This document shows, in pieces, positions 41,112-46,395 of a stretch of 64,000 bases of DNA. How positions within the stretch are numbered: position 1 is the first letter of the stretch; each line of letters opens with the position of its first letter. The position numbers and the translations under genes are program-made. Location: the NCBI RefSeq assembly GCF_002259585.1, contig NZ_MWWS01000004.1, positions 124,001 to 188,000 on the forward strand. Direction: 5' to 3'. The notes below the pieces were generated by a model that saw only the letters and a program-made list of their open reading frames with translations, searched no databases and was not told the origin of the DNA. This stretch comes from Bombiscardovia coagulans (lineage in GTDB: Bacteria; Actinomycetota; Actinomycetes; Actinomycetales; Bifidobacteriaceae).

Positions 41112-42446
41112 ATGAGCTTTATGGGTAGTAAATCTGCAGCGCGGCATGCCGATAAGAAAAACTGTCCAATACGATTACTTACCGTTGGCATAGCAAGCAT
41201 TGCGGCTGGAGCCACTCTCCTAGGCTTCGTTTCTCCCGCACTTGCTGCAGACAATAGTACTGATCAGAACACAGTGAACGAACAAATCGCAGCAGCATCG
41301 AAGGCACTTGAAAAGGCCAAAGCCACTCTAACTGATAAAAAGAATGCAGCAGATCAGGCAACTGCTTATAAAGCACAAGGAACTGCGGGTTACTTTAAAT
41401 ACGTTGGAGCCACCGGTGCTTATCAGGTTCTCACAGACTCAACCGTCAACGGCAAGTTAGCTCCTTCCATTAAATTGGGAGACCCTAAGGATGCAACAAG
41501 CATAGATAACATGGTCGCGACCATGGAACAGCTGCAAAAAGCAAACCAACTGCGTGTGAATGAAGGAAAGCCAGAACTTAAGGTCTCCGATACCCTAATG
41601 GCTATTGCCCAAGCTGATGTTGACTGGGCATCAACGAACATAGATCATCCCCAGCAGTTCACCGTTGGAGAGAATTTGTCGTGGGGTAACATTGACCCGT
41701 TTATCAGCTGGTATGACGAAGAAAAGGCTGCACATGACTTTAACGTAGCCCACCCTTCTGATCCTCAGAAGATTGATGGCCACTACCTTAACATTGTCAG
41801 TGACAAGTATGACATAACTGGTTTCGCAAAGTCTCAATATCCTAATCCATACAACAACATGACATACGGGCAAACCTTTTACATGAGTTCTGCCATAAAG
41901 TCTGTTGCACCTGCCAGTTATGAGGAAAAAGATAAGTCTCAGCTTGTCAGTGCTTCCTACACACATCCTGCTGCTAATATAGCCACCCCAGCCTCAGTAT
42001 TCACCGCTGCAGCTGACACCAGCAACATCTATGCGGGTTCAAGAACAATGACAGTTGCCGATTATACTGCCAATCTTAAAACCTATCAGAATTGGATAGC
42101 TGATCCTCAGAAAGATGTTTCTTCTGCTCAAGCAGCCGTGGATAATGCTCAAGCAGCTTATGATGCTCTTATAGCAAAGCAACAGCCAAAGCCAGGTAAC
42201 ACCCCCACAGCTCCTAAGCCACCGACTCCAGACCGCATCAATCGAGCCCATGGGACAGCACCAGGTTCAAAGCCAGTATCTGATCCTGTGCAAGGAAGGG
42301 CACTACCTAAAACGCGCACCTCAGCTGATCCAGCTAAGACACGCTTAGCACAAACTGGCAGTAATATATTAGGCGTAGTCGCCGTAGCCATAGGACTGTG
42401 CTTGACTGCGGTATCTGCCTTTGTACTCAAGCGCAAGGCGGTCTAA
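41112..42446 (+). CDS. Sortase-anchored cell-surface protein with CAP/SCP-like domain
   Basis: A 444-residue secreted protein. A signal peptide (about 1-45, basic start, hydrophobic core, cleavage after ALA) is followed by a short coiled coil (about 50-80). A CAP-like domain spans about 130-285 (NQLRVNEGKPELKVSDTLM, VGENLSWG, then HYLNIVSDKYDITGFA). A second Ala-rich coil lies near 340-365, then a Pro-rich wall-spanning stretch (PKPGNTPTAPKPPTP). The C-terminus is a sortase signal LAQTG (412-416), a hydrophobic helix and KRKAV. Such surface proteins can act in adhesion; CAP function is unknown here. AGGAAGGG precedes the ATG, and a terminator follows. Confidence 0.85.
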   Translation: MSFMGSKSAARHADKKNCPIRLLTVGIASIAAGATLLGFVSPALAADNSTDQNTVNEQIAAASKALEKAKATLTDKKNAADQATAYKAQGTAGYFKYVGATGAYQVLTDSTVNGKLAPSIKLGDPKDATSIDNMVATMEQLQKANQLRVNEGKPELKVSDTLMAIAQADVDWASTNIDHPQQFTVGENLSWGNIDPFISWYDEEKAAHDFNVAHPSDPQKIDGHYLNIVSDKYDITGFAKSQYPNPYNNMTYGQTFYMSSAIKSVAPASYEEKDKSQLVSASYTHPAANIATPASVFTAAADTSNIYAGSRTMTVADYTANLKTYQNWIADPQKDVSSAQAAVDNAQAAYDALIAKQQPKPGNTPTAPKPPTPDRINRAHGTAPGSKPVSDPVQGRALPKTRTSADPAKTRLAQTGSNILGVVAVAIGLCLTAVSAFVLKRKAV

Positions 42447-45243: not shown

Positions 45244-45293
45244 ACTGCAAAAACGCAAAGCACCTCGGAAGATAATAATCGTTCCGAGGTGCT
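45244..45293 (-). terminator. Terminator of the LEA-like gene
   Basis: AGCACCTCGGAA (45259-45270) and TTCCGAGGTGCT (45282-45293) form a perfect 12-bp stem. On the minus strand it is followed by TTGCGTTTTTGC. Confidence 0.8.
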
Positions 45294-45314: not shown

Positions 45315-45542
45315 TTACTGGTCCATCTGATCCTTTGCCTTATTCTTCATGTCCGTGGCGCTCTGCTCTGCTTTGGCCTTAGCTACATTGGCATCTGCCT
45401 TAGCTTGGTCAGCCGCGTCGGACATTTTATCTTTAGCTGTCTCTGCAGCATCAGACATCTTGTCTTTTGCAGCATCTGCAACATCAGATATTTTATCCCC
45501 TGCTGCCTTCATGGCATCCTTTGCACTATCTAAAATACTCAT
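45315..45542 (-). CDS. Small LEA-like 11-mer repeat protein
   Basis: A 75-residue hydrophilic, alanine/lysine/aspartate-rich protein with no Cys, Trp, Pro, Tyr or Phe. Three tandem 11-residue units are visible: DKISDVADAAK (16-26), DKMSDAAETAK (27-37) and DKMSDAADQAK (38-48). The preceding DSAKDAMKAAG and the following Ala/Lys region are looser copies. The 11-mer amphipathic helix pattern is that of group 3 LEA and related stress proteins. A strong AGGAGG 6 bases before the ATG and its own terminator show it is a real, probably well-expressed gene. Function (desiccation or membrane protection) is inference. Confidence 0.85.
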   Translation of the reverse strand: MSILDSAKDAMKAAGDKISDVADAAKDKMSDAAETAKDKMSDAADQAKADANVAKAKAEQSATDMKNKAKDQMDQ

Positions 45543-45630
45543 CTGGTCCTCCTTGTTTTTGATATACGCGACATTAATAACGCGTGACCAATTGAGTCAT
45601 TTTCTATTTTAGCAGAGAAATTACAAAATT

Positions 45631-45807: not shown

Positions 45808-46395
45808 ATGAAGGAATTAGAGGATCGCATCCGTCGTGATGGAACCATAAAGCCTGGAAATGTGCTCAAAGTAGATGCTTTTCTCAACCACCAATGTGAT
45901 GTAGCACTATTCGACGCTATGGGAGCACATTGGGCTCAACTGTTTGCAGGCCGTCAGATTGATAAGATTCTCACGATTGAAGCTTCCGGTATCGGAATCG
46001 CATGTGTTGCAGCTCGCCATTTCGGAAATGTACCAGTTGTTTTTGCTAAAAAAACGCAGTCCATTAACTTGGACGGAGACCAATACGTTTCCAGTATTTA
46101 TTCTTTTACGAAACAGCGTGAGTACCCAGTGATTGTTGCTAAACGATTCTTGCAGGCCGGAGAACATGTGCTTCTTATCGATGATTTCCTTGCAAAAGGC
46201 AATGCGCTTCACGGACTCATAGACATCTGCAAGCATGCTGGTGTCATTGTCGAAGGCATAGGTATAGCGATCGAAAAAGGTTTCCAAGAGGGTGGCTCAA
46301 AACTACGAAAAGAAGGTTATGACGTTAAGTCTCTTGCAATTGTAGAAAAGATGGATGCTGATACCGGCAATATAGAGTTCGCAACGACTGATTGA
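45808..46395 (+). CDS. xpt: Xanthine phosphoribosyltransferase
   Basis: A 195-residue purine salvage enzyme converting xanthine and PRPP to XMP. The PRPP-binding motif is [15 protein letters not shown] near residue 125, and the N-terminal [20 protein letters not shown] and [12 protein letters not shown] are typical of Xpt. The start is the ATG at 45808, with AAAAGGA 5 bases upstream; an upstream in-frame extension to 45721 has no homology-like character. It partners functionally with the purine permease at 39552 and with guaA. No purine riboswitch was recognised in the long leader. Confidence 0.95.

What the first reader, a model, noticed from the sequence alone, without database searches (positions are those of the whole stretch)
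45315..45542. Tiny LEA-like protein built of 11-residue repeats
Residues 16-48 are three near-identical 11-mers (DKISDVADAAK, DKMSDAAETAK, DKMSDAADQAK), flanked by looser copies. This is the amphipathic 11-mer helix pattern of group 3 LEA proteins. The gene has a strong ribosome binding site and its own terminator, so it is probably abundant. It may be a stress or desiccation protectant, unusual to see described in Bifidobacteriaceae.
Basis: partly seen in the sequence, partly recalled or inferred. Interest (0 to 1): 0.5.

Follow-up and report, generated by a model that had tools for sequence, protein, structure and literature searches.

The report
Small bifidobacterial LEA-like amphipathic-helix protein
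A 75-residue bifidobacterial protein is built of 11-residue repeats that would coil into one long two-faced helix, much like the drought-protection (LEA) proteins of plants and animals; a protective role is likely but untested.

Summary
In detail: a 75-aa ORF on the minus strand (45542 to 45315) carries three near-identical 11-mers at residues 16-48, beyond chance. It is a conserved gene: 27 of 27 genus genomes match, 49 of 189 in the family, and the protein is under purifying selection. Relatives share terminal segments while the middle varies in length; all 8 distinct length differences keep whole turns of an 11/3 helix. AlphaFold gives one helix, residues 3-74. The wheel has an Ala/Met/Val face, Lys mostly at its borders and Asp opposite. 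One frame fits the group 3 LEA consensus TAQAAKEKAGE. Longer orthologues match Pfam LEA_4 (E down to 6e-8), but none passes its cut-off and the window protein does not match. So it is LEA-like in design without formal LEA_4 membership. "Probably abundant" is not supported: codon usage is ordinary. The leader has a covarying hairpin and a possible, unproven stem at the start codon. Function, expression and stress role are untested; my paper searches showed no description in Bifidobacteriaceae.

The parts
45315..45542 (-). CDS of the 75-aa LEA-like protein (stop codon included)
   Evidence: match in 27 of 27 genus genomes; dN/dS 0.06-0.15 in the 6 of 10 pairs where dS is defined
45399..45497 (-). 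three 11-residue repeats, residues 16-48 (33-bp DNA unit)
45498..45542 (-). conserved N-terminal segment, residues 1-15 (MSILDSAKDAMKAAG)
   Evidence: alignments A1, A3
45318..45398 (-). conserved C-terminal segment, residues 49-75 (A49, A56, N67, K70 invariant among the 14 rows of A3)
45548..45554 (-). Shine-Dalgarno AAGGAGG
   Evidence: the same or a near-identical site (AAGGAGA in two) in the 21 genus loci with this gene order
45566..45585 (-). leader hairpin P2 (ACGCG...CGCGT)
   Evidence: 58 of 60 cells paired over 12 of 14 distinct leaders, shuffle P 0.0004, on a hand alignment; also in the RNAalifold consensus
45543..45591 (-). possible long-range stem P1 (TTGGTC 45586-45591 with GACCAG 45543-45548, between Shine-Dalgarno and start codon)
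   Evidence: conserved, but not supported by covariation (65 of 72 cells, P 0.158); weakened in L003, broken in L004
45606..45614 (-). extended -10 promoter-like TGCTAAAAT
   Evidence: read from the sequence; TAnnnT boxes at a similar place in the relatives shown there; consensus only
45247..45293 (-). terminator-like hairpin (12 bp, imperfect T tract) between the gene and pcrA
   Evidence: fold; not found by the scan

Best explanation
A single-copy cytosolic protein of the group 3 LEA type in design. It is very hydrophilic and probably largely unfolded when dilute. On crowding, drying, or contact with a membrane or protein surface it would fold into one continuous 11/3 amphipathic helix of about 72 residues, with a weak Ala/Met/Val face, Lys at the interface and Asp on the polar side, and would act as a weak, reversible surface binder that buffers membranes and shields proteins during stress. 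Shown: repeats, helix phase, conservation, selection on the protein. Inferred: disorder, cytosolic place, surface binding, stress function.
For: Lag-11 identity and a 98-99 degree hydrophobic moment above shuffles. In the window protein two windows reach at least 8 of 9 scored LEA 11-mer classes (both 9 of 9); 0 of 2000 shuffles have two (consensus TAQAAKEKAGE from PMC6559209; the residue classes are mine). AlphaFold single helix 3-74, mean pLDDT 94.4. The 9 family sequences tested all fall on the disordered side of a charge-hydropathy line. Mean lipid-discrimination factor D is 0.04, the kind of weak amphipathicity reported for group 3 LEA homologues (PMC10808001, abstract and passages). 8 of 8 distinct length differences keep whole 11/3 turns. 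LEA_4 matches at this gene in 17 of 27 genus genomes, while 0 of 10 shuffles of one such protein match any Pfam family at E<=0.05.
Against: The window protein has no LEA_4 match and no match passes the cut-off. The LEA class pattern is marginal in the other forms: the 86- and 97-aa proteins have one window each (P 0.03-0.05). Invariant terminal residues suggest a more specific contact than generic shielding. 140 of 189 family genomes show no match at E<=0.001, so it is no universal protectant. There are no expression, stress or binding data. The AlphaFold model is from one sequence, disagrees on its face with disorder, and cannot tell a lone helix from a coiled coil.
Confidence: 0.5

Rival explanations
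1. It is a homo-oligomeric right-handed hendecad coiled coil, a rod or spacer, with Ala/Met/Val at core positions a, d, e, h.
For: Apolar positions 2, 5, 6, 9 of the 11-mer have the spacing recalled for hendecad cores; whole-turn length changes would keep coiled-coil phase just as well; single straight helix in AlphaFold.
Against: The face is mostly Ala with few large residues, and the chain is very hydrophilic (GRAVY -0.88). Oligomer state was not modelled.
Confidence: 0.2
2. It is a constitutive membrane-associated amphipathic helix (apolipoprotein- or perilipin-4-like) that stabilises the cell membrane also outside stress.
For: Class A charge layout (class name recalled); weak Pfam Apolipoprotein matches in 15 of 17 members at E up to 0.1; the window starting at residue 53 has D 1.14.
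Against: Mean D is 0.04 and 5 of 58 windows exceed 0.68 (threshold recalled); the Apolipoprotein score is far below cut-off (16.9 against 90 bits).
Confidence: 0.15
3. It is an adaptor or regulator that binds one partner through the conserved terminal segments, the repeats being a variable linker.
For: Eleven invariant positions among 14 rows, kept in relatives from another family of the order; a gene-specific hairpin leader suggests regulation.
Against: No single neighbour is shared by the eight loci looked at by eye outside the xpt/pcrA clade (two of them, L037 and L038, do share upstream genes); phase-locked repeats are more than an inert linker needs.
Confidence: 0.15

Closest known systems
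Group 3 LEA proteins (Pfam LEA_4, PF02987), e.g. Deinococcus radiodurans DR_1172 (PMC6559209, passages) and Aggregatibacter BilRI (PMC8096337, abstract and passages)
   Same: repeated 11-mer with the same order of apolar, acidic and Lys positions; hydrophilic; potential amphipathic helix
   Different: 75 aa with three clear repeats between conserved ends, against 8 motifs in the DR_1172 domain and 11 repeats in BilRI; LEA_4 cut-off not reached in any of 27 genus genomes
Tardigrade HeLEA1 (PMC10808001, abstract and passages)
   Same: weak hydrophobic moment and low discrimination factor; weak reversible membrane binding
   Different: from an animal and mitochondrial when expressed in yeast; membrane binding is shown there, only inferred here
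Perilipin-4 amphipathic helix (PMC5889406, abstract and outline only)
   Same: long repetitive amphipathic helix, unfolded in solution
   Different: giant lipid-droplet coat; no homology claimed
YtxH-like, DUF883 and Apolipoprotein families (Pfam)
   Same: weak profile similarity, probably from Ala/Lys/Asp-rich helices
   Different: all below the curated cut-offs for the window protein

Membership tests
Group 3 LEA / Pfam LEA_4 | tandem 11-mers of the TAQAAKEKAGE type | tested here: met
   window protein: two windows at 9 of 9 class positions, 0 of 2000 shuffles have two at >=8; lag-11 repeat; consensus, residue classes mine. Marginal in the 86- and 97-aa forms (P 0.03-0.05)
Group 3 LEA / Pfam LEA_4 | score above the LEA_4 curated cut-off (51.1 bits) | tested here: not met
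   window protein: no match at E<=10 (at that loose limit 3 of 14 control genomes match); 18 of 27 genus genomes match at E<=0.01, 17 at this gene and one elsewhere, 0 over cut-off, best 34.3 bits, 0 of 14 controls
Group 3 LEA / Pfam LEA_4 | amphipathic helix with about 11/3 periodicity | tested here: met
   moment peak 99 degrees, shuffle P 0.002; wheel; AlphaFold helix
Group 3 LEA / Pfam LEA_4 | disordered in water, helical on drying | tested here: inconclusive
   charge-hydropathy on the disordered side for 9 of 9, but AlphaFold gives a confident helix; needs CD or NMR
Group 3 LEA / Pfam LEA_4 | induced by and protective in water deficit | not testable with these tools
   no expression or phenotype data
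Hydrophilins | high glycine content and high hydrophilicity (PMC4190154, passage; the 6% glycine figure is recalled) | tested here: not met
   glycine 1.3% in the window protein; 2.6-8.1% in eight relatives
Pfam Apolipoprotein / YtxH / DUF883 | score above curated cut-off | tested here: not met
   16.9 of 90, 15.4 of 37.5, 13.7 of 25.4 bits

The most novel reading that the evidence does not exclude
An undescribed actinobacterial protein family in which repeat number is free to vary but helical phase is not, so that one unbroken helical face is the selected trait; and in this clade its synthesis is gated by an mRNA leader whose 5' end pairs with the start region, for example a temperature-sensing RNA switch on a LEA-type protectant.
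Probability: 0.15. Interest if true: 0.65.

Novelty: new variant of a known kind. Interest (0 to 1): 0.38.

Why it matters
A tiny LEA-like protein with natural variants of 22 to 55 residues between two conserved points, in whole helical turns each time, offers a minimal natural series for testing how helix length sets protection or membrane binding. Bifidobacteria are dried and frozen commercially (recalled), so a native protectant would have practical interest.

Tried and rejected
Abundance from codon bias: rejected. Phage or plasmid origin: no plasmid match at E<=0.01; 127 pattern matches in viral contigs, none confirmed as a relative; weak PHROGs tape-measure hits, best E 0.0036, which I take to be compositional. 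Known RNA family near the gene: only sX6, 16.6 bits against a gathering score of 40. The leader as a regulon: the exact pattern occurs once in the genome; model R1 finds this gene's leader in 21 of 27 genus genomes (14 of the leaders built it) and otherwise only matches at E>=0.15, but the search scored 150 candidates per genome out of 436-845, so weak copies could be missed. Solved structures: best profile match SHERP, E 0.042. Fold library search was not run, since a lone helix matches too much.

Relatives outside the family. In the order 42 of 297 genomes match at E<=0.001: 9 are Bifidobacteriaceae, 6 of family f19 at E<=2.7e-11 are full-length relatives, and 27 are weaker. I looked at the ORFs of 15 loci of the weaker group: other Ala/Lys/Asp-rich proteins or unrelated long ORFs; the rest were not read, and none was counted as a member. 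In the class 5 of 296 match at E<=1e-6: own and four of f19; own and three of those four are rows of the query alignment, and other f19 genomes in the list have no match. The single-sequence family search gave 52 of 189 at E<=0.01, some of them weak hits inside long ORFs; I use the profile count of 49.

Limits of the phase test. The 42 distinct proteins come from fetched loci only and from a regular expression that fixes G at residue 14 or 15; four family genomes with matches (G088, G120, G162, G164) had no locus and are not in it. Multiples of 11 could arise by slippage of the 33-bp unit; the four differences that are not multiples of 11 (7, 15, 18, 7) all fall on whole turns, P 0.0014 for random lengths if independent.

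One search read minus-strand loci in the wrong direction and used a wrong xpt start; one search replaced it.

Full report
What is there. The ORF runs on the minus strand from 45542 to 45315: MSILDSAKDAMKAAGDKISDVADAAKDKMSDAAETAKDKMSDAADQAKADANVAKAKAEQSATDMKNKAKDQMDQ. It lies between xpt, divergent (45808-46395), and a pcrA/uvrD-type helicase gene on the same strand (45134-42546); these gene names are mine, from the translations. It has AAGGAGG upstream and a terminator-like hairpin downstream.

It is a real gene. The genome holds one copy; 27 of 27 genomes of the genus match at E<=0.001. The one named relative that the genome-contig scan returned is in Bifidobacterium xylocopae, 81% identity. 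In 21 of 27 genus genomes xpt and pcrA flank it; in the other six neither was found within about 1.5 kb. Among five 75-aa orthologues, dN/dS is 0.06-0.15 in six of ten pairs; in the four pairs with the window gene dS is saturated, with 39-43 of 55-63 differences at third positions. In the family 49 of 189 genomes and 4 of 16 genera match the profile at E<=0.001.

It is repetitive in a specific way. Identity at lag 11 is 0.41, and 0 of 2000 shuffles reach it. Of nine family sequences that I picked, seven show the lag-11 signal (P<=0.021); the two 65-aa forms do not (P 0.77 and 0.11). The hydrophobic moment peaks at 99 degrees in all nine and exceeds shuffles in eight (P<=0.006); L071, from family f19, does not (P 0.25). 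On an 11/3 wheel, positions 2, 5, 9 and mostly 6 are Ala/Met/Val/Ile, Lys is commonest at the borders (positions 1 and 10) and Asp on the opposite side (positions 0 and 4).

Length varies by whole turns. In 42 distinct proteins the spacing from G15 to the conserved Lys is 22, 29, 33, 37, 40, 44 or 55, and from that Lys to the conserved Asn 19, 26 or 30. All 8 differences from the shortest spacings lie within 0.34 residue of whole 11/3 turns; the best-fitting period is 3.66 residues, and 0 of 20,000 random sets fit as well. I take this to mean that one continuous helical face is what selection keeps. It does not say whether the face meets lipid, protein or another copy of itself. The differences are counted by distinct values, not by events on a tree.

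Comparison with LEA proteins. The frame AAETAKDKMSD lines up with TAQAAKEKAGE (PMC6559209, passages) class by class. Pfam LEA_4 finds three 86- and 97-aa orthologues at E 6e-8 to 1e-6, and matches in 18 of 27 genus genomes at E<=0.01, 17 at this gene and one (G005) elsewhere, with 0 of 14 control genomes at that limit. Ten shuffles of one orthologue give no Pfam match. No match passes the cut-off and the window protein has none. Hence 'works like', not 'is a' LEA_4 protein.

Beyond the family. Six genomes of another family of the order (f19) carry 65- to 76-aa relatives with the same terminal motifs. All six have the 22-residue middle; four have the usual Lys-Asn spacing and two have 7 or 11 extra residues there. 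I read the short form as the core and the repeats as expansion; this direction is inference, no tree was made.

Leader. A 5' hairpin covaries: 58 of 60 cells paired, P 0.0004, in a hand alignment of 12 of the 14 distinct leaders (two near-duplicates left out). A second stem that would bring the 5' end against the stretch between Shine-Dalgarno and start codon is conserved in sequence but not supported by covariation (65 of 72 cells, P 0.158), weakened in L003 and broken in L004. RNAalifold on the automatic alignment finds both stems, with a covariation term of only -0.01 and double changes in 2 of 10 pairs. Minimum-energy folds contain the second stem in 10 of 14 leaders; z-scores are modest, -0.58 to -2.41, and the Shine-Dalgarno is paired with mean probability 0.06-0.55. 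Regulation by this leader is a suggestion only.

Expression. Codon adaptation is that of an average gene. A strong ribosome-binding site alone does not show abundance.

Literature. Searches of open-licence PMC papers for Bifidobacterium with 'late embryogenesis abundant', 'LEA-like', YtxH and hydrophilin, for freeze-drying proteomes, and for LEA-like/Actinobacteria/11-mer/desiccation listed no paper whose title or abstract start describes such a protein; I read the listings, and passages of PMC10057886 and PMC8227259, not the other hits. Bacterial group 3 LEA proteins are known: DR_1172 (PMC6559209, passages), BilRI, whose promoter is more active at low temperature (PMC8096337, abstract and passages). 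LEA 11-mers alone raised drying survival of E. coli (PMC8670023, passages).

Verdict. A conserved small LEA-like protein family that my searches did not find described; structure class well supported, function inferred.

Noticed in passing
window 45543-45614, minus strand: Gene-specific mRNA leader with a covarying hairpin and a possible stem next to the start codon; found at this gene in 21 of 27 genus genomes.
   Followed up: partly
window 41112-42446, plus strand: 444-aa ORF with a signal-like N terminus and a C-terminal LAQTG motif, hydrophobic stretch and basic end, which looks like a sortase-anchored surface protein (recalled pattern, not searched).
   Followed up: no
L021-L023 and L025-L027: Six genus genomes carry the gene without xpt or pcrA within 1.5 kb and with AAGGGGG-type ribosome sites, so the gene or its surroundings were rearranged.
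   Followed up: partly
L074 and L076: In two f19 relatives the extra 11 or 7 residues lie in the C-terminal part, suggesting growth at a different place.
   Followed up: partly
L037 and L038: Two loci from genus g5 share two upstream ORFs that look like a phosphoglycerate-mutase-type protein and a ribosome-silencing-factor-type protein (my reading, no family search).
   Followed up: no
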